NCBI GenBank assembly: GCA_029240815.1
Contig: JARDZO010000151.1
Span: 1-13,184, forward strand
Origin: Brevibacillus sp.
Lineage (GTDB): Bacteria > Bacillota > Bacilli > Brevibacillales > Brevibacillaceae
DNA length: 13,184 bases
Direction: 5' to 3'
Both the position numbers and the translations under genes were made by a program. Shown here in pieces: positions 363 through 12,256 of this stretch (within the stretch, counting starts at the first letter, position 1; each line of letters begins with the position of its first letter). The notes below the pieces were generated by a model. The model was not told where the DNA came from. It did not search any database and was given only the letters and a program-made list of their open reading frames with translations.

Positions 363-1781
363 TCAATACACTTTTTTCAGAATAATTAGTAAGAACATTG
401 ACATGAGCAAGTAAACAAGTGTAAATGGCGCATTCCAGTTGGATATACGAATCGAACTCTGCTTGGTCAGATTCGCCATCATGCCCGCCGTTGCGTTGTA
501 GGGTCCCATCAAAAAAGCAGTCGCCGCCCCTGTCAGCATCGCGATCGCTGTCAGCTCGGGGGTAATCCCCAATGCGTGCGGATTGAGAGATTCAGCAGTC
601 AGAGCCAATCCCACTGCCGGATGCAAGCCGATAAAAGCTAGAGCAAGCGGGATCAACGGAATCAGCAACAGAAACAGATCGGCTCCAATCAGATCCTTTC
701 CCGCCATAATCCATCCATTGAGTACATGTCCAGCACCCGAAGTCTGGATCGCGGAAATCATGAATCCGGCGCAGAGAAAGACGACGAATTGCTCTCTCAT
801 TTTCAACAGCTGCGCAGGCAGCATCCTCTTGCTTTTCTCCAAAAACGGGCGGCCTGAACCGATCAGAATCGACCAGAAGAGGGCGAACGGCACGACAGCC
901 ACAGATACAAGCAATAAAAAGCTGTAATGCGTATACCTTTCCAGTAAAGCGATCAGGCACGTAAAAACAAGAATAGCCGCCAAAATATGCACAGGGTGGC
1001 TTGTCGGGCGATCCTGGTGCCGCCGCTCATCCGCGTGTTGCCTGGCAGCAGCCAGTTCGCTGACCGCCATCGGGTCCAGCTGTTTCAGTCTCCGCTTTGC
1101 GATCCAGTGTCCCATGAACCCATCTATCGCCAGCCCGAATATACTGAACGGAATCATGATCGGTAAAATCGCGCTCCAGCGAACATCTGTCATCTCCACG
1201 ATAATGCCAACAATCGGCGCTACAGGAGTCCATACGATTGGCATGCTGTACCCATGCGTAATCGCCCGGCTGATAAAACGCTCCTTTTGTTCGATCGGAA
1301 ACAATTCCACCGCGGGGCGAATCGTTTGATACACCATGGGCAACGTCGCGATATTCATGAAGGAACTCAGAATATACGACAAACTCGCTGTGATCGTATA
1401 AAGCAGACCGGATCGTTTGATGGTCCGCTGGATCATGTGCTGGATCCGGCTCGCATAATTCCCCAGCTCAATCGGCAGGGCGATGAAGGGAATCAAGGCA
1501 AACAGACTTAAAATATTGAGCATATTGCCAAAGCCAGTAACAAACTGCGTCCACGGAGCACCGCTCCCCAGCAGCAAACTCCCCCCAACAAAAAGAAACA
1601 AAGTACTGAGCCCCTGTACGAAGCGGGGAACGAAACGAAACACCATGATCACGATAAGAATACTTAGTGTGGAAATGACCCAATGCAGGAGCTCGGACGG
1701 ATAAAAAGCGGACAGTAAATAAGCGGCAATAGCCGCCAAGAATACATAGGGCGTAAGCTTAGATAAGTTCTTTGACAGCAT
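363..1781 (-). CDS. Multi-spanning membrane permease, ion-transporter-superfamily-like
   Basis: An integral membrane protein of about 472 residues with ten or more strongly hydrophobic segments and short charged loops, the longest near the middle (after KRRLKQLDP). The open frame extends to 1847, but the extra N-terminal stretch is arginine-rich and overlaps the upstream gene by 89 bases. The better start is ATG at 1781 (MLSKNLSKLTPYVFLAAIAA), which goes straight into the first membrane segment and has GGAG 10 bases upstream. With that start it overlaps the creatininase gene by 23 bases, implying translational coupling. The general build recalls citrate, dicarboxylate or other anion carriers of the ion-transporter superfamily, but I do not recognise the exact family. 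From its coupling it probably moves the substrate or product of the creatininase-family enzyme. No clear terminator is seen before the next gene at 248. Confidence 0.75.
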   Translation of the reverse strand: MLSKNLSKLTPYVFLAAIAAYLLSAFYPSELLHWVISTLSILIVIMVFRFVPRFVQGLSTLFLFVGGSLLLGSGAPWTQFVTGFGNMLNILSLFALIPFIALPIELGNYASRIQHMIQRTIKRSGLLYTITASLSYILSSFMNIATLPMVYQTIRPAVELFPIEQKERFISRAITHGYSMPIVWTPVAPIVGIIVEMTDVRWSAILPIMIPFSIFGLAIDGFMGHWIAKRRLKQLDPMAVSELAAARQHADERRHQDRPTSHPVHILAAILVFTCLIALLERYTHYSFLLLVSVAVVPFALFWSILIGSGRPFLEKSKRMLPAQLLKMREQFVVFLCAGFMISAIQTSGAGHVLNGWIMAGKDLIGADLFLLLIPLIPLALAFIGLHPAVGLALTAESLNPHALGITPELTAIAMLTGAATAFLMGPYNATAGMMANLTKQSSIRISNWNAPFTLVYLLMSMFLLIILKKVY

Positions 1782-2511
1782 GAGCCAGCCGCTCCAGAGC
1801 GGTCTCCACGATTTCCTGTCCGATCTCATAGCTTGCCTTGGTCGCATCCCCTATGCATCCGTTACGGGTCATTTCTTCATAATAATAGAAGCCTTGGAGC
1901 GGATTGCCCGGACGCAGCTTTTTCCATCGGCCTTCCTGATAATCAGCCGCTTCCAGTTTTTCCTGACGGACGAGATGCGGCGCGAGATACAACGCTTCTG
2001 ACACTTCGCGATCGCAGCTGTGGCCATACAGCTTGGATTCCAATCGGCGATCCATGACGTCCTTGGCAGAAGCCGTCGTCTTGGCATAGTAAATGCGGAC
2101 GTCCAGTTCACGAGTCAGCATCTCTGTGGCTACCCCAAGAGTCGCTTGATTCCCCCCATGAGCATTTAAAATAAGGAAGTGCTCAATCCCGTGTTGCTTC
2201 AACGATTTCACCATGTCGCGCAAAATCGCAATCACCGTCGTCGGTTCCAGCGAGATCGTCCCAGGAAAATGAAGATGATGGGGCGACACCCCCATATTGA
2301 TCGTAGGAGTCAAGATCGCTTCCGGATACAGCTTTTCCGCCAACCGTTTTCCCATCTCTTCAGCGAGCACCGCATCACAGCTTTCCGCCATATGCGATCC
2401 GTGCTGTTCATGTGCGCCCAGAGGAATCACTGCAATTTTCACTGTGCGTAAAGCATCTTTCACTTCTGGCCATGTCATTTGTGTTAACAGATAAGCTGTC
2501 GTCATCCTCAT
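1759..2511 (-). CDS. Creatininase-family metal-dependent amidohydrolase (first copy)
   Basis: A 250-residue protein, normal length for the family. The metal-site motifs are visible: PLGAHEQHGSH with E35 and H37, D46 after it, PTINMGVSPHHLHFPGT around 69-85, and NAHGGN at 116-121. The usual HAGExETS segment appears as GHSCDREVSEAL (163-174), with E169 the likely equivalent glutamate. Known members hydrolyse a cyclic or linear amide: creatininase, the FAPy deformylase of archaeal flavin synthesis, and MftE, the peptidase of mycofactocin maturation. The substrate here cannot be assigned; true creatinine use is not supported by any neighbour. ATG at 2511 is chosen because GGGAGAGG lies 8 bases upstream; ATG at 2505 is the alternative. 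It is the first gene of a minus-strand operon with the permease, and the palindrome at 2531-2547 sits directly before it. Confidence 0.88.
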   Translation of the reverse strand: MRMTTAYLLTQMTWPEVKDALRTVKIAVIPLGAHEQHGSHMAESCDAVLAEEMGKRLAEKLYPEAILTPTINMGVSPHHLHFPGTISLEPTTVIAILRDMVKSLKQHGIEHFLILNAHGGNQATLGVATEMLTRELDVRIYYAKTTASAKDVMDRRLESKLYGHSCDREVSEALYLAPHLVRQEKLEAADYQEGRWKKLRPGNPLQGFYYYEEMTRNGCIGDATKASYEIGQEIVETALERLAHAVKELI

Positions 2512-2640: not shown

Positions 2641-3291
2641 GTGAATCGCATGCTGCACTATCGCCACTACCTAGATAAAAAATCAGTGGCTTATTTGTCT
2701 GACGCGTTAATCCGACATTACGAAAACAATCCCGTGCATACTGAGATTGTCGTCGTTTGCATTGGCACCAATCGTTATTCTGGCGATTCCTTAGGGCCGA
2801 TGGTTGGCAGCCAATTAGTCGAGCTGCTGAAAGATCAACGTCACATCCATATTTACGGAACACTGGACAATCCCGTGCACGCCTTGAATATGCAAAAGAC
2901 GCTCTCCCGTATCTCCCAAAAACATGTTCGTGCGTACGTCATCGCCGTCGATGCTTGCCTCGGGCAATATTACAAAATCGGTACGCTCCAGGTCGTTGAA
3001 GAGCCTCTGCAGCCGGGAGTCAGTCTCGACAAGCAGCTGCCTCCCATCGGGCATGTTCATATCAAAGGAATCATTAACAATTACGGACCGTTAAACCACA
3101 AAGTCTTGGAACATACGAGCCTCACCTTTGTGCAGGAAATGTCCGGTGTGATCAGCCGGATCCTGACGAGAGCCGTTTTAGAAATCATTCCGCAGCTCGC
3201 AGGAAACCTCCCCACGGACAACAGCTCTACTGCTACCAGAGAAACAAAGCTGCGATCGTGGCAATCGATAATCCCAAGACGACAGGGATAA
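2641..3291 (+). CDS. yyaC: YyaC-type sporulation protein (DUF1256, Gpr-protease-like fold)
   Basis: A protein of 213-216 residues, close to the length of Bacillus subtilis YyaC. The signature CIGTNRYSGDSLGPMVG near residues 40-56 matches the family's GTDRxxGDxLGPLVG motif, which includes a conserved aspartate related to the spore germination protease Gpr. Further family-like pieces are YGTLDNPVHALN and VIAVDACLG. YyaC is a sporulation-associated protein of unclear biochemical activity. Two starts compete: GTG at 2641 (AGGAAG 7 bases upstream) and ATG at 2650 (AGGTGA about 6 bases upstream). The ATG start is at least as good and would shorten the protein by three residues. The gene is the only plus-strand gene in this half of the window and seems functionally unrelated to the minus-strand operons. 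Its last 59 bases lie antisense to the end of the permease gene that stops at 3233. Confidence 0.9.
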   Translation: MNRMLHYRHYLDKKSVAYLSDALIRHYENNPVHTEIVVVCIGTNRYSGDSLGPMVGSQLVELLKDQRHIHIYGTLDNPVHALNMQKTLSRISQKHVRAYVIAVDACLGQYYKIGTLQVVEEPLQPGVSLDKQLPPIGHVHIKGIINNYGPLNHKVLEHTSLTFVQEMSGVISRILTRAVLEIIPQLAGNLPTDNSSTATRETKLRSWQSIIPRRQG

Positions 3292-4684
3292 AGTTTTTAC
3301 GTGCCAACTCAATGACCGATACGCCGGCAAAGCCAGCTACCGCTACCAGTGAAGACCAGGCGATCAATGTTCCGCCTCCGGACCATACCGAGCCCATTTG
3401 CCCGATAGCTGCCAGCGTCGAAGGATCGATTCCGACAGTTGGCCCCAATGCACCAGAGAGCGAACCAGTCAGCGGGAGTCCGGAGAATCCCGATCCTTCC
3501 AATCCCGCGATGATTCCGATGATTAGGATGCCAAACGACGTTAAAAATCCATTGGCTGGAATGGCATATTGCACAGACATGACTAAATCATACAAAATCG
3601 CGGGAGCCGCAGCAGATTCGCCTAGCGAGAGAATGCTTTTCGAGAAGTCTGCATTTCCCAGAAAGAAAAAACCTGCGATGGGAATCACTGGCCCCATGGC
3701 TTTAAAGGCAAAGACAAAACCTTCTGTCAAATGGTCACTGATCTTGTCCAATGCTCCAATCTTCGAGAACACCGTACAGGACAGGATTAACAGGATCACG
3801 GCTACACCGCCGATGAAAGCTGCTCCATCTCCCCCCTCGAAGCCCCCCATGTTCGTTCCTCCGAATTTACTCGCTGCCATAACCGCCATGACAGCAAGCA
3901 TCGATAACGGAACCAAAATCGAAAAAATCTTCGACCATTTCAGAATATTTGGAGGTAAAGTTTCTACAGCCGCTGCGGCTTGTGCGTACTCTGTTGATTC
4001 CTGGACAGGACGAATATTCCCTGATTCATGCTGGTTAAATGGTGTTTCGGACTTGCGGATTGCCTTGCGGTGCATGAGGTATGCGACAGTTATGGATACT
4101 CCGCCAGTAATGAGCGACAGGACCATTGCCTTGTCTGCGACCATCCCAGTAGCTACCCCTGCGCCTTTTGCACTCAGCATCGGTGCGACTTGCATGATAT
4201 AGTCGGAGGATAGTGCCATCCCCTGTCCCGCAAGCGCAACTGCCATCGCAGCAGCCATCGGTGGAAGTCCGACTCGAATGGCAGCGGGGAACAGCAGCGC
4301 CCCGATGAGCGGTACAGCAGGAGTGGGCCAAAAAAACAAGGAGATCACATACGTGACAATGGCAAGTACAAAAAAGGCCACATGTCCGTTGATCATCAGC
4401 CTCTGAATGGGGCGGATCATTCTGCGGTCAGCCCCAATATCACGCAGGGAAGCCAACAAAGCCACCATGAAGGTAATGATCAAAAAGATTGTAAACAGTT
4501 CTTTTGCTGCTGTGAGATTCGCGTTGTAGACGGCTTGGAATCCACTGATCACATCCCCCTTGTAAATCCAGCCTACCAAAAAAGTACCGATTAAAGATGG
4601 AATGACAACACCGCGCCGGAACAACATGACAATAATGACAGCAACTGTAACAATAGCGTACACCACATGTGACAAAGTGATCAT
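3233..4684 (-). CDS. Large multi-spanning permease (DcuC/GntP/anion-carrier-like)
   Basis: An integral membrane protein of about 483 residues with roughly a dozen hydrophobic segments and one hydrophilic central loop (around residues 213-245, with HRKAIRKSETPFNQHESGN). The glycine- and proline-rich re-entrant-like stretches FFWPTPAVPLIGALLFPAA and MALSSDYIMQVAPMLSAKG, and the near-repeat GSVWSGGGTLIAWSS toward the end, recall ion-transporter-superfamily carriers for organic acids. I cannot name the substrate. The open frame starts at ATG 4690, but the ribosome binding site AGGGGGG touches that codon. ATG at 4684 (MITLSHVVYAIV) sits at correct spacing and is preferred. It is transcribed alone toward the creatininase operon, with convergent yyaC in between. 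An extended -10 (4727-4735) and operator copy 3 (4762-4778) lie upstream, tying it to the same regulon as the creatininase and PqqC-like genes. Confidence 0.8.
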   Translation of the reverse strand: MITLSHVVYAIVTVAVIIVMLFRRGVVIPSLIGTFLVGWIYKGDVISGFQAVYNANLTAAKELFTIFLIITFMVALLASLRDIGADRRMIRPIQRLMINGHVAFFVLAIVTYVISLFFWPTPAVPLIGALLFPAAIRVGLPPMAAAMAVALAGQGMALSSDYIMQVAPMLSAKGAGVATGMVADKAMVLSLITGGVSITVAYLMHRKAIRKSETPFNQHESGNIRPVQESTEYAQAAAAVETLPPNILKWSKIFSILVPLSMLAVMAVMAASKFGGTNMGGFEGGDGAAFIGGVAVILLILSCTVFSKIGALDKISDHLTEGFVFAFKAMGPVIPIAGFFFLGNADFSKSILSLGESAAAPAILYDLVMSVQYAIPANGFLTSFGILIIGIIAGLEGSGFSGLPLTGSLSGALGPTVGIDPSTLAAIGQMGSVWSGGGTLIAWSSLVAVAGFAGVSVIELARKNFIPVVLGLSIATIAALFLW

Positions 4685-4726
4685 CTGCATCCCCCCTGCA
4701 CCATTAGATTAGGTCCGTACAAAAAA

Positions 4727-4735
4727 ATTGTAGCA
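4727..4735 (-). promoter_or_regulatory. Extended -10 promoter for the permease
   Basis: The minus strand reads TGCTACAAT: a TGN extension followed by TACAAT, one base from the consensus TATAAT. The start of transcription would fall near 4720, about 35 bases before the ATG at 4684. No good -35 box lies 17 bases upstream, as is usual for extended -10 promoters. Confidence 0.5.
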
Positions 4736-4761
4736 TAAACCTCCGTCAAAAAATAGAGTTT

Positions 4762-4778
4762 TGGCTTATTGTATACAA
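4762..4778 (-). promoter_or_regulatory. 17-bp palindromic operator, copy 3
   Basis: TGGCTTATTGTATACAA matches the best copy (2531-2547) at 14 of 17 positions and keeps the ATTGTATAC core. It lies about 80 bases upstream of the permease start, just upstream of the -35 position of the extended -10 promoter. Confidence 0.5.
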
Positions 4779-4957
4779 TTATTTTCTGAAAATAGCATTA
4801 ATTCCACGTTTCTTCTACTAATTATCATTATTGGTGTCACTATATATCACATCCCTTGCCTCACACGTAAGCAGAGTTTAGTTAATGTAAAAAAACACAA
4901 TTCCCGTTCAGCCCAACCTCCGCCCACAAGTCGGTTTTTCAACGATTGTACATCCTT

Positions 4958-4972
4958 TTGAAAGCGATTACA
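4958..4972. promoter_or_regulatory. cre-like site (CcpA operator)
   Basis: TTGAAAGCGATTACA fits the published cre consensus WTGNAANCGNWNNCW at every defined position. CcpA binds such sites for carbon catabolite control in Bacillales. It lies 17 bases left of operator copy 4 and about 275 bases upstream of the permease gene, so it may place that transporter under glucose repression. A single short consensus match could be chance. Confidence 0.45.
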
Positions 4973-4988
4973 ATTGGAAATTATTCAT

Positions 4989-5005
4989 TTGCATATTGCA
5001 TACCA
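4989..5005. promoter_or_regulatory. 17-bp palindromic operator, copy 4 (weaker)
   Basis: TTGCATATTGCATACCA matches the best copy at 14 of 17 positions but is less symmetric; its left part is a direct repeat of TTGCATA. Its centre is 227 bases from copy 3. On the minus strand it contains TATGCAAT where copies 1 and 2 have TATACAAT. No protein gene starts directly beside it, so it may be a remote operator for the permease, or control the structured element to its right. Confidence 0.4.
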
Positions 5006-5088
5006 ATTAATTGCTTTGACATTCTCAAAGATGTGAGATTACCGCGGATATTATGCACGCGTCCTTTGGTTTGTTGGTCAATCGAACG

Positions 5089-5563
5089 GTGGTGGAGGGA
5101 AGGAAAAAGGGGAAAACACTCCAGCGATAGGGACACTGCTTGGATGATTGACTGTCTAGCTCCAGCCTTGACTATCCAACTTTCCTTTTCTTGGGGGCTT
5201 TCCATGGAGTTGAAAAGAACGCTACTTGGGGCAATGCCTACGACGAACGGAAGCTTTTCCCCCTTGAATGACCGCTAAAAAGGTGGCTAGAAACCACAAC
5301 AGCTCGCAGGAGAAGCAGGTTTCCAGGCGGAGCGACTCCGGAACCCAACTTAGCGGAACAACGAATTCACGGGATCCAGAAGCGGTACCTCTGTATTCCC
5401 TATGGAGAGGCTACTTCTTTACCGCTTCCCCGTGAATCGTTGTGGAGCGGACTGTCTATACTCCTATGCAGGGCAGCCGAACCAGTTCGGTGGGAATAGG
5501 CTGGAGCGCAGATCGGAAGCCTGCTTCTCCCCACCTCCGCAATGTTGATAAGCTCACCTTTTT
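5089..5563 (+). ncRNA. Candidate large structured RNA or hairpin-rich repeat element (copy A)
   Basis: This stretch has no credible protein frame but many complementary segments. From the 5' end: GGGGAAAA (5109-5116) can pair with TTTTCCCC (5255-5262). AAAAAGGTGGCT (5277-5288) pairs with AGCTCACCTTTTT (5551-5563) with one bulge. GGAGAAGCAGGTTTCC (5309-5324) pairs with 5515-5530 over 16 bases, including one G-U. Inside that lie CAACGAATTCACGGG (5359-5373) with 5429-5442, GAAGCGGTA (5379-5387) with TACCGCTTC (5420-5428), CCTCT (5388-5392) with AGAGG (5406-5410), and a CCGAA/TTCGG hairpin at 5477-5490. GGAGCG occurs three times (5329, 5444, 5503). The plus strand is chosen because related copy B ends in a plus-strand terminator; a miniature inverted-repeat element with termini 5277-5288 and 5551-5563 is the main alternative. 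I do not recognise a known RNA family. Confidence 0.6.
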
Positions 5564-5591
5564 ATCCCTAAGAATTTACACTCCGATATGC

Positions 5592-5620
5592 AAAAAAAGG
5601 CCGCATGATGAGCAGCCTTT
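5592..5620 (-). terminator. Intrinsic terminator of the ArsR-MFS operon
   Basis: On the minus strand, 24 bases after the MFS stop codon, AAAGGCTGC pairs with GCGGCCTTT around a TCATCAT loop, followed by a run of seven T (plus strand A 5592-5598). This separates the operon from the structured element to the left. Confidence 0.85.
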
Positions 5621-5643
5621 GATTCTCGTAGCTTTTTATTCTC

Positions 5644-6879
5644 TTAACCAGACACCTTATACAGAGTCGTGCTTTGACGATACCGTTTTCCATATAGTTG
5701 TTTCCCCAGCCAATAAAATACCAGACTTACGAGGGCGCAACCAGCCATCACCAGAAACATCGTCGGCCCCCCATAGGCAGACAAAATCATTCCCCCCGCC
5801 CAAGGTCCGAGGAAACTACCCAGCTCACTGACGCTTTGCGCCCCATAGTAAGTCCCCCGCATATTGGCAGGGCTGATTTGATCGATCTGGGCGTATTCGG
5901 CGGGTACGATCAAGATCTCACCCAAGGTAAACACGATCATGGCGCTCACCATCCAGACCCAGCCTGCCGAGAAAGCAAATCCGACCTCCCCCACAGCCAT
6001 CAGCACAGCTCCTCCCGCAATTCGGGAAAACAAGGAATACCGTTCGACCAATCGGGTCAATGGAATTTGCAAGAGTAATACGGTAAAGCCATTGGCGCTC
6101 ATCATCACACCAAATAGCGCTACCCCTTCAGCCACATGCTCCCTCAAATACTGAGACAGCGTAACAGACATTTGTCCGTGCACCGTGACCAGCAAAATTC
6201 CGCCCAAGACAAAGGACAGCAGTGCGGTGTCCCGACTGAGGACCTTCCACATTTGGCCCAGACCAGGCTTTTCTTCCACTGCTTCTCCCTGACCATCGCC
6301 CACTGCATAGTGCTTGCAAGCTACCGCTAGCACAAGGGCAAACAGCACATAGGAGATAGCCGTCATGAAAAACGCTGTACCACTCCCGGCAATACCGAGA
6401 AACGCACCGAGCATCGGGCCGATTGCGACTCCGAGGTTGTTTGCTAAATACCGATTGGAAAAGACGCGAAACCGTTTATCCTCCGGTGTCAGATCCCCCA
6501 TCATGGCCTTGGAGACGGTGCCATAAAACGATCCAGCCAAGCCTTTTACGAGACTGACCACAAACAGGGCTATTGGATGACTGACTGTGATAAAGGCAGC
6601 AAACGCAGCAGCCATGACCAGCATCGACAGGATCATGAGCTTGCGCCTGCCAATCAGATCGGACAAAATCCCTCCGAGAAACCCGCCTACCGTGCCCGCC
6701 AATGGCCCAGCCCCAATAATGACCCCGATGTAAGCAGGTCCGAGCGTCGTCGTCTCACTCAAATAGATGGCCAAAAACGGCATGCTCATCGCTTGCGTGA
6801 GCATCACAAATACCGTGCCCGCCATCAACAGATGAACGACGGGATGATAAGCCTGCCAATATTGCCGCAACCGATTCAT
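5644..6879 (-). CDS. Major facilitator superfamily exporter
   Basis: A 411-residue protein with about 12 membrane segments, typical of drug:proton antiporters. The loop between segments 2 and 3 carries GGILSDLIGRRKLMI, a clear form of MFS motif A (GxxSDRxGRR), and the N-terminus MNRLRQYWQAYHPVVHLLMAG leads into segment 1. A repeated loop signature, VERYSLFSRIAGG, is seen in the second half. The substrate cannot be read from sequence; efflux of a toxic small molecule is most likely. Its ATG overlaps the stop codon of the ArsR-type regulator gene in an ATGA arrangement, so the two are translationally coupled and the regulator probably controls this exporter. A strong terminator follows. Confidence 0.88.
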   Translation of the reverse strand: MNRLRQYWQAYHPVVHLLMAGTVFVMLTQAMSMPFLAIYLSETTTLGPAYIGVIIGAGPLAGTVGGFLGGILSDLIGRRKLMILSMLVMAAAFAAFITVSHPIALFVVSLVKGLAGSFYGTVSKAMMGDLTPEDKRFRVFSNRYLANNLGVAIGPMLGAFLGIAGSGTAFFMTAISYVLFALVLAVACKHYAVGDGQGEAVEEKPGLGQMWKVLSRDTALLSFVLGGILLVTVHGQMSVTLSQYLREHVAEGVALFGVMMSANGFTVLLLQIPLTRLVERYSLFSRIAGGAVLMAVGEVGFAFSAGWVWMVSAMIVFTLGEILIVPAEYAQIDQISPANMRGTYYGAQSVSELGSFLGPWAGGMILSAYGGPTMFLVMAGCALVSLVFYWLGKQLYGKRYRQSTTLYKVSG

Positions 6880-11392: not shown

Positions 11393-12217
11393 TCACACTC
11401 TATCATGATGAATCACTCGTGAATGATGTTTCCGTTCTCTAAATATTCGAATAAACTCAACTAGCCCCTCAACTGCAGCATCGAGCAGTCTTTCCCCTTT
11501 TTCCTTAGTCGCAACCGTTGGATCTCCCAACGTTCCTGTTTCGGAGATAGAACTCCAGTACGGCATCATGATAACTGGTCTGCCTTCGCCTCGGCCAACC
11601 AAGTCCAGCCAGAAATACTTGGATGTTTTAAATTTATCCATATCGCGAACCGCTTTGTCCATCTGTACGAGTTCTTCCCTTATAGCCAGATACATGGAGG
11701 TCTCGAGTTCGCAGGCATGATTCATACCTCCTGGATTCTCCGATTCCCGAATTTCTTCAGCCAGTTCAATTACGGGCTGCATATCCCAATGAGATATAGA
11801 GGCACACATCACATCTGGATATTCCAAAATCGTCTGGCGTGCCACTACCTGAAGCAAGGAGACGTTACTACCGTGACCGTTGAGCAATAGAATTTTTTTA
11901 AAACCTTGATGGGCAAGGCTTCTACAAACATCGGTGACATAGTTAATGAATGTTTGCGAGCTAATCGAAATGACTCCAGGAAAGTCCATTTGATGAGGGG
12001 CATAGCCGTGGTTTATAGGTGGTATGACAACCATTTCAGACGGAATTTTTTTGGCAGCGCGAACGCATACTTCATTGGCCAAAACCAAATCAGTGTCAAC
12101 AGGCAGGTGGTGACCGTGTTCTTCAATCATTGCTACGGGAACCACAGCTACACGATCCTCACGAATCACCTGCTGGACTTCAGGCCAAGTCATTTCGGCA
12201 AAAAGGTACTTTCTCAT
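11393..12217 (-). CDS. Creatininase-family metal-dependent amidohydrolase (second copy)
   Basis: A 274-residue protein with a full set of family motifs: EMTWPEV (8-14), PVAMIEEHGHHLPVDTD (27-43) with E32, H34 and D43 as likely metal ligands, PPINHGYAPHQMDFPG (66-81), LNGHGSN (112-118), and NHACELETSMYLA (166-178), a close match to the HAGExETS signature. It shares the N-terminal YL-x-x-MTWPEV arrangement with the copy at 1759-2511 but differs in most other positions, so the two are paralogues rather than a recent duplication. The open frame extends to 12244, but GGGAG lies 7 bases before ATG 12217, which is chosen. It is 39 bases downstream of the iron-dependent dehydrogenase and co-oriented, so probably cotranscribed. 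The pair suggests hydrolysis of an amide in a compound also oxidised or reduced by the dehydrogenase; no substrate can be named. Confidence 0.88.
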   Translation of the reverse strand: MRKYLFAEMTWPEVQQVIREDRVAVVPVAMIEEHGHHLPVDTDLVLANEVCVRAAKKIPSEMVVIPPINHGYAPHQMDFPGVISISSQTFINYVTDVCRSLAHQGFKKILLLNGHGSNVSLLQVVARQTILEYPDVMCASISHWDMQPVIELAEEIRESENPGGMNHACELETSMYLAIREELVQMDKAVRDMDKFKTSKYFWLDLVGRGEGRPVIMMPYWSSISETGTLGDPTVATKEKGERLLDAAVEGLVEFIRIFRERKHHSRVIHHDRV

Positions 12218-12256
12218 CTTCATACTCCCTTTCTTGAGGAACATTTGTACTTTGCT

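What the first reader, a model, noticed from the sequence alone, without database searches (positions are those of the whole stretch)
5277..5563. Large nested-stem element that looks like an undescribed structured RNA
Within 287 bases of non-coding DNA there are at least six helices that nest cleanly: a 12-pair closing helix (5277-5288/5551-5563), a 16-pair helix (5309-5324/5515-5530, one G-U), a 14-pair arm with one bulge (5359-5373/5429-5442), its 9-pair continuation (5379-5387/5420-5428), a 5-pair tip (5388-5392/5406-5410), and a side hairpin at 5477-5490. This is far more than expected by chance and is separated from the neighbouring genes, including by the MFS terminator. It could be a stand-alone large RNA or a miniature mobile element with folding termini.
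Basis: seen in the sequence. Interest (0 to 1): 0.8.

Follow-up and report, generated by a model that had tools for sequence, protein, structure and literature searches.

The report
Terminator-seeking hairpin mini-transposon in Brevibacillus
The folded stretch is probably not a new RNA gene but one old copy of a widespread family of tiny bacterial jumping DNAs that fold into a long hairpin and settle at the small hairpins that end genes; relatives show which transposase most likely moves them.

Summary
The helices are real. They belong to a dispersed DNA element rather than a stand-alone RNA. A covariance model built from 30 copies matches in 26 of 26 Brevibacillus genomes and in 43 of 299 genomes drawn from the class, 27 of them outside those 26. 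25 of 49 predicted pairs show double-sided changes. The pairing is close to strand-symmetric, unlike SRP RNA from the same genomes, which points to a hairpin kept as DNA.

In related subfamilies the element has inverted terminal repeats (TCAGnnTGnAGACAAA) and sits in intrinsic terminators, with the whole terminator hairpin duplicated on both sides. Intact IS1182-family insertion sequences in genome G224 have the same ends and the same duplication. This matches a route that Wan et al. 2017 drew as a possibility. The window copy is an old member without a visible duplication, 50 bases past the MFS terminator, beside a probable decayed second hairpin core. That it is a mobile element is near certain. 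That IS1182 moved the window's own subfamily is inference.

The parts
5303..5546 (+). Main hairpin core (M-type), full match to covariance model R1 (positions 1-223, 201.9 bits)
   Evidence: the window sequence is one of the 30 rows the model was built from, so the score is partly by construction
5309..5324 (+). 5' arm of the outer core stem (pairs with 5515-5530)
   Evidence: compensatory changes across 30 copies
5515..5530 (+). 3' arm of the outer core stem
5359..5387 (+). 5' arm of the inner stem (pairs with 5420-5442)
5420..5442 (+). 3' arm of the inner stem
5477..5490 (+). Side hairpin inside a short insertion; among the 30 aligned copies only the window has it; a similar insertion is seen in L064 (not among the 30)
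5277..5288 (+). Left outer arm AAAAAGGTGGCT (pairs with 5551-5563); either element end or flanking target sequence; a similar but imperfect pair flanks the copy in L059
5551..5563 (+). Right outer arm
5287..5295 (+). CTAGAAACC motif at the left edge, present in 7 of 8 aligned copies of the window's subfamily (L061 has ATAGAAACC)
5080..5197 (-). Probable remnant of the divergent partner core (P-type) of a two-hairpin element
   Evidence: aligns with partner cores of other copies in its 3' half, judged by eye; only 6.2 bits with R1 on its own
5596..5620 (-). Intrinsic terminator of the MFS gene, reading toward the element, ending 50 bases from the core
5644..6879 (-). MFS transporter gene upstream of that terminator
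   Evidence: PF07690, 149 bits

Best explanation
The feature is one old copy of a widespread family of non-autonomous, hairpin-bodied DNA elements (MITE-like). The body is kept as a nearly strand-symmetric DNA hairpin or cruciform, not as an RNA. In the subfamilies with recognisable ends, an IS1182-family DDE transposase acting in trans binds the shared ends (TCAGnnTGnAGACAAA) and joins them to the foot of a stem-loop target, usually an intrinsic terminator, on both strands. Repair then copies the whole hairpin, so its length sets the length of the duplication. Each gene keeps a terminator, so insertion should be nearly harmless, and arrays can grow by re-insertion into the same terminator. 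Shown here: the family, its covariation and near strand symmetry, the terminator duplications, and the shared ends with intact IS1182 elements. Inferred: the cleavage chemistry, action in trans, that the element's own hairpin takes part in transposition, the harmlessness, and that the window's subfamily (two divergent cores beside a terminator, no duplication seen) was moved the same way.
For: Dispersed family: matches in 26 of 26 Brevibacillus genomes and 43 of 299 class genomes. Covariation: 25 of 49 pairs with double changes over 30 copies. Near strand symmetry with the SRP control and three further alignments, one of them leaning to the + strand. Ends: the TIR pattern gave 18 matches in G026 and 46 in G006 against 0 and 4 for the reversed control. 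Duplicated terminator hairpin: 24 of 32 end-defined elements have an exact flanking repeat of at least 14 nt; with a looser end pattern 29 of 42 have at least 12 nt, with 0 of 684 in mismatched-flank controls. By hand count, 17 of the 30 rows with a repeat of at least 16 nt have the exact repeat the same length as the hairpin and flush with the element (18-31 nt). In the diverged genomes G224 and G257, 8 of 10 fetched copies have repeats of at least 12 nt. Parent: of 17 G224 loci with an IS1182-type domain, 12 show both ends, and 7 of these have repeats of 20-31 nt; the transposase of L258 scores 491.5 bits to NCBIfam IS1182, cut-off 270. A truncated IS1182-type gene in G006 and G026 carries the same end beside a terminator hairpin. 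Window: relatives G001 and G012 have short intergenic regions here, and the copy abuts a terminator as do 13 of 17 hand-picked copies with a partner core, against 66 of 2000 random 100-mers.
Against: The window copy has no flanking duplication and no clean empty site; the intergenic regions of relatives are too diverged. No IS with ends matching the window's subfamily was found. PF13751 was absent from 4 of 16 genomes searched (G012, G016, G020, G075), all of which hold matches to the model, so the partner is often missing today. None of 24 hand-picked paired elements shows an outer direct repeat longer than 9 nt. In G018 a core copy lies inside an IS1182-family IS with quite different ends. 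8 of 32 end-defined elements lack a repeat of at least 14 nt. A DNA role of the core hairpin rests on covariation only.
Confidence: 0.78

Rival explanations
1. A stand-alone or cis-acting structured RNA, spread by hitch-hiking on mobile elements.
For: Strong fold; 25 of 49 pairs with double changes; conserved unpaired motifs such as GGAGCG give the model a clear strand (L085: 244.6 against 38.3 bits); on the pairs common to both strands of A1 there are 44 G-U and 24 A-C cells of 1705; the G006 type II alignment folds better on the + strand (-156.5 against -146.3) and has 6.3% G-U and 4.6% A-C on the union of pairs.
Against: Equal alifold energies on both strands of A1 (-125.9 and -125.9) with 57 pairs common; on the union of pairs 47 G-U and 68 A-C cells of 1825; SRP RNA control -163.6 against -115.4, and 11.8% G-U against 1.6% A-C on the union; the partner-core alignment has more A-C than G-U on the union (6.5% against 3.4%); no Rfam match.
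Confidence: 0.1
2. The paired changes come from arm-to-arm templated correction (quasipalindrome correction) of any long inverted repeat, not from selection for a hairpin.
For: It gives strand symmetry for free. On the common pairs of A1, 170 cells are changed on both sides with pairing kept, against 41 changed on one side and 69 non-standard; in SRP RNA the forward pairs give 26, 35 and 10.
Against: Conserved unpaired stretches persist across subfamilies and genera, which correction alone should erase. Sequences are related, so these cells are not independent events, and the excess over all intermediates (170 against 110) is modest.
Confidence: 0.25
3. A REPIN-like element moved by a single-strand (Y1/RAYT-type) transposase.
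For: Paired, divergently oriented hairpins in many Brevibacillus copies; gene-end location.
Against: Terminal inverted repeats with long target duplications and a DDE-type IS partner in the TIR-bearing subfamilies. No search for RAYT genes was made.
Confidence: 0.08
4. Domesticated transcription-punctuation repeat (double terminator or mRNA-end protector), kept for the host.
For: 13 of 17 hand-picked paired copies follow a terminator (random 100-mers are a weak control because gene ends are naturally rich in terminators).
Against: Different terminators at different loci, insertions with exact duplications, and arrays.
Confidence: 0.1

Closest known systems
IS1272 and TnSha1 (IS1182 family), Staphylococcus; Furi et al. 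2016 PMC4923244 and Wan et al. 2017 PMC5678879
   Same: IS1182-family elements; targets are stem-loops without sequence consensus, several of them RNA-seq-confirmed terminators (Furi: passages; Wan: abstract and passages).
   Different: There the hairpin is partly or wholly deleted and there is no duplication. Here the whole hairpin is duplicated, a route Wan et al. drew as possible pathway b. The mini-elements have no transposase.
Bacterial MITEs (review PMC10969869; passages read)
   Same: Short, non-coding, multi-copy, terminal inverted repeats, target duplication, same ends as an autonomous IS (definition partly recalled).
   Different: Conserved, covarying 223-nt hairpin body across genomes of several lineages; the term search found no mention of IS1182 in the review's main text.
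Stem-loop repeat families of PMC2267715 (for example Bhal-1, Bcr1; passages read)
   Same: Dispersed repeats able to fold.
   Different: The Bacillus families seen in the passages are 72-167 bp; sequences were not compared here.
Pneumococcal SPRITE, BOX and RUP repeats (seen only as mentioned in passages and a search listing)
   Same: Terminator-like or clustered dispersed repeats.
   Different: Not compared by sequence; nothing in those passages on whole-terminator duplication.
Group IIC introns (recalled)
   Same: Insert at intrinsic terminators.
   Different: Retroelements without terminal inverted repeats or duplication; no group II match in Rfam scans.

Membership tests
MITE (non-autonomous IS derivative) | Short and without a transposase gene, multi-copy | tested here: met
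   256-346 nt between ends (leaving out L137, whose 3' end match is poor); many matches per Brevibacillus genome
MITE (non-autonomous IS derivative) | Terminal inverted repeats | tested here: met
   Met in subfamilies of G006, G026, G224; not clear for the window's own subfamily
MITE (non-autonomous IS derivative) | Target-site duplication | tested here: met
   24 of 32, 29 of 42 with 0 of 684 controls; not seen for the window copy or for 24 paired elements
MITE (non-autonomous IS derivative) | Same ends as an autonomous element of the same genome | tested here: met
   G224 IS; remnant in G006 and G026; none found for the window's subfamily
IS1182 family (for the putative parent) | Transposase scores above the family cut-off | tested here: met
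   NF033551 491.5 bits for L258 and 386.6 for L080, cut-off 270
IS1182 family (for the putative parent) | Demonstrated mobilisation of the mini-element | not testable with these tools
   needs an assay
Structured non-coding RNA | Covarying base pairs | tested here: met
   25 of 49 pairs
Structured non-coding RNA | Strand asymmetry of the fold and G-U pairing | tested here: not met
   A1 symmetric, SRP control not; partner cores and the G224/G257/G082 set near symmetric, G006 type II leans to the + strand
Structured non-coding RNA | Discrete transcript | not testable with these tools
   no RNA-seq held
Known Rfam families (incl.
   0 in the window; in 8 related loci only a c-di-GMP-I riboswitch far from the element
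REPIN/RAYT system | Y1-type RAYT transposase partner | not tested
   no search made

The most novel reading that the evidence does not exclude
A DNA-shape-to-DNA-shape transposition system of Bacilli: a transposase recognises folded DNA in both partners, a conserved, covarying cruciform as donor body and the cruciform of any intrinsic terminator as target, and its cut at the hairpin foot makes a duplication as long as the hairpin. The donor hairpin would be a selected functional DNA structure, comparable in logic to integron attC sites but served by a DDE enzyme.
Probability: 0.35. Interest if true: 0.8.

Novelty: new variant of a known kind. Interest (0 to 1): 0.6.

Why it matters
It supplies many sequence-level examples of a transposition outcome, duplication of an entire stem-loop target with length set by the hairpin, that was drawn as a possibility for the IS1182 family. 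It also describes a widespread dispersed element that RNA-discovery pipelines could mistake for a large structured RNA, because it covaries. Comparing G-U with A-C cells on both strands, with an RNA control, is a cheap way to tell DNA hairpins from RNAs in such screens. Intrinsic terminators appear as safe havens for mobile DNA.

Tried and rejected
Known RNA family: Rfam scans of the window at gathering score, of 4700-5750 at E up to 5, and of 8 related loci gave nothing relevant. Plasmid and phage collections: no match at distant sensitivity for 5100-5640. A search in the window's own genome was not possible. A clean empty site for the window copy was sought in L001 (B. centrosporus) and G012; both have short intergenic regions of about 185-215 bases but too little alignable sequence to place the insertion ends. 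IS1182-type elements of G022 and G013 (ends GGGGCTGTCC), G018a and G011 were examined as parents and do not share the ends. The IS of G018 that carries a core copy has other ends (GAGAGCCCTGC) and was not taken as parent; its transposase matches 9 of 80 loci, L058-L137. The core is absent at E 1e-3 from 23 loci holding IS1182-type genes, including the G224 IS.

My first 69-copy MAFFT alignment gave a poor consensus (-56 and -63 kcal/mol) and was replaced by 30 hand-chosen copies that align well (A1); this favours conserved copies. Pairs predicted from one strand favour that strand's wobble, so adds the union of both strands' pairs. My first terminator test was too strict (2 of 17 against 12 of 2000); the second, with longer loops and one mismatch, gave 13 of 17 against 66 of 2000. 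I changed it after seeing obvious terminators missed, so the second figure is not blind. The wider flank test over 138 model hits gave exact repeats of at least 14 nt in 27 of 138 against 1 of 690; several of the 27 are tandem-array repeats rather than target duplications. Notebook entry 2 speaks of 36 elements; the recount is 32.

No listed title or abstract start describes this family, but the library lacks most subscription papers and all preprints, and ISfinder could not be searched. 'Undescribed' means not found in these searches.

Full report
Observation. The + strand of 5265-5575 folds with z -5.6 and the - strand with z -4.1; none of 100 shuffles does as well in either case. The window has no Rfam match at gathering score.

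Origin and dispersal. The three relatives returned for the neighbouring MFS gene are Brevibacillus (B. centrosporus, B. parabrevis, B. invocatus). BLAST with window 5230-5580 finds related DNA at E 1e-3 or better in 20 of 26 Brevibacillus genomes. I fetched 60 regions. An iterative profile gave 90 non-overlapping copies there, 73 of them full. The same intergenic interval in G001 and G012 is only about 185-215 bases long and lacks the element. Copies also occur as tandem arrays (L062, L116, L117, L077).

Structure. 30 hand-chosen, well-aligning copies, the window among them (A1), give a consensus with 49 pairs, 25 of which have at least one sequence with both sides changed and pairing kept. 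The covariance model R1 has matches at E 1e-4 or better in 26 of 26 Brevibacillus genomes, 3 to 74 per genome. These are matches, not copies: a copy can match on both strands and partner cores match too (compare), while the tool scores at most 88 candidates per genome. In a draw of 299 genomes from the class, 43 have matches; 16 of these are among the 26 and 27 are not. I take the class to be Bacilli; the tool does not name it.

DNA or RNA. For an RNA, G-U pairs are tolerated on the transcribed strand only; on the other strand the same cells read A-C. For A1 the two strands fold equally (-125.9 and -125.9 kcal/mol, 57 pairs in common). On the common pairs there are 44 G-U and 24 A-C cells of 1705; on the union of pairs 47 G-U and 68 A-C of 1825. 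SRP RNA from the same 26 genomes (22 distinct sequences) gives -163.6 against -115.4, with 17.6% G-U and 0.1% A-C on the forward pairs and 11.8% and 1.6% on the union. The control is much less diverged (96% against 73% identity). Three other alignments, on the union: partner cores 3.4% G-U and 6.5% A-C (energies -104.2, -104.3); G224/G257/G082 5.3% and 3.9% (-147.1, -145.0); G006 type II 6.3% and 4.6% (-156.5, -146.3), which leans to the + strand. On the whole the fold is conserved in a nearly strand-symmetric way, as expected for a DNA hairpin or cruciform. Selection on the DNA hairpin or arm-to-arm correction could give this. Conserved unpaired stretches speak for selection; on the common pairs 170 cells are double-changed against 41 one-sided and 69 non-standard, which is compatible with either.

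Ends and target. In genomes G006 and G026 the elements have clear ends, TCAGACTGAAGACAAAC and TTGTCTACACRCTGA, and lie between two copies of an intrinsic terminator hairpin that differs from locus to locus. Of 32 elements with both ends, 24 have an exact flanking repeat of at least 14 nt. Among the 8 misses, some show the two hairpins diverged, L134 has two different terminators, and L137 has a poor 3' end match. With a looser end pattern over all loci, 29 of 42 short pairs have repeats of at least 12 nt against 0 of 684 mismatched flanks; a few of the 42 are chance pairings of end-like sites. The repeat equals the hairpin: in 17 of the 30 rows with at least 16 nt (hand count) the exact repeat and the hairpin have the same length, 18 to 31 nt, flush with the element. 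In the diverged genomes G224 and G257, 8 of 10 fetched copies have repeats of at least 12 nt. A target duplication whose length follows the hairpin is what results if the transposon ends join at the feet of a cruciform on both strands.

The autonomous partner. In G006 and G026 a truncated IS1182-type gene ends in the same terminal repeat, followed at once by a terminator hairpin. In G224 intact IS of about 1.55 kb have the same ends. Of 17 G224 loci returned by the domain search (21 matches in all), 12 show both ends; 7 of these have exact repeats of 20-31 nt, and one (L276) has two similar hairpins. In L264 and L267 the left hairpin of one matches the right hairpin of the other, as recombination between copies would give. 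The transposase of L258 (499 aa) scores 491.5 bits to the IS1182 model of NCBIfam (cut-off 270) and carries PF05598, PF01609 and PF13751. These IS do not contain the core.

Known background. Furi et al. 2016 (PMC4923244, passages) and Wan et al. 2017 (PMC5678879, abstract and passages) report that IS1272 and TnSha1, IS1182-family elements of staphylococci, insert into stem-loops, several of them RNA-seq-confirmed terminators, with deletion of the hairpin and no duplication. Wan et al. [quoted passage not shown] The elements described here fit b. In G018, five of the six IS1182-family copies (L080-L084; L079 served as reference) could be read at both ends: all five lie in terminator-like hairpins, four with an exact and one with an imperfect 6-base repeat of loop sequence, which resembles c (read by eye). 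A 2025 paper on a megatransposon states that IS1182-related transposases differ in target choice and duplication (PMC12056078, passages). A survey reports IS1182 over-represented between convergent genes (PMC9208149, passages), which fits gene-end targeting.

The window copy. It belongs to a Brevibacillus subfamily in which two diverged cores lie divergently; 20 of 24 hand-picked pairs span 484-601 nt. The partner in the window is a probable remnant at 5080-5197 on the - strand: it scores only 6.2 bits with R1, but its 3' half aligns with the partner cores of other copies. The copy lies 50 bases beyond the MFS terminator. 13 of 17 hand-picked copies with a partner core, the window included, follow a terminator reading toward them, against 66 of 2000 random 100-mers, which include coding DNA and are a lenient control. 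None of the 24 pairs has an outer direct repeat longer than 9 nt, so this subfamily may insert beside the hairpin, may have lost the repeat, or may use another enzyme. PF13751 was not found in 4 of 16 genomes searched, so copies there look like relics without a partner.

Verdict. Mobile hairpin element: near certain. DNA rather than RNA as the conserved form: likely. IS1182 as the mover: strong for the subfamilies with ends, inferred for the window copy. The kind (MITE, IS1182, hairpin targets) is known. The whole-terminator duplication as an observed outcome, the covarying hairpin body and the wide spread were not found in the literature searches made.

Noticed in passing
window 3233-4690 (-): 485-aa ORF with long hydrophobic stretches (by eye) next to the element has no Pfam or NCBIfam match at E 1e-3.
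   Followed up: no
window 1759-2511 (-) and 11393-12244 (-): Two ORFs look like creatininase-type amidohydrolases (recalled motifs, no family search made) in one 13-kb window.
   Followed up: no
L079-L084 (G018): Six near-identical IS1182-family IS carry a copy of the hairpin core beside the transposase start (the longest ORF of L080 overlaps the first bases of the core); L080-L084 lie in terminator-like hairpins with 6-base repeats of loop sequence.
   Followed up: partly
L062, L116, L117, L077: Tandem arrays of the core with about 210-295 nt spacing; L117 holds shortened units.
   Followed up: partly
L264 and L267 (G224): The terminators flanking two IS copies look exchanged, as after recombination between the copies.
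   Followed up: partly
L118-L136 (G006): A second interior type (329-346 nt) shares the ends and a central motif with the main type and is the commoner one among the G006 loci fetched (20 of the 25 G006 elements by length).
   Followed up: partly
L138, L145, L151, L155 (G022) and L139, L146, L152, L156, L159, L163, L167 (G013): Another IS1182-type group with ends GGGGCTGTCC; hairpin cores lie close beside the copies in L138 and L139.
   Followed up: no
L085 815-898 (-): c-di-GMP-I riboswitch, 85.8 bits.
   Followed up: no
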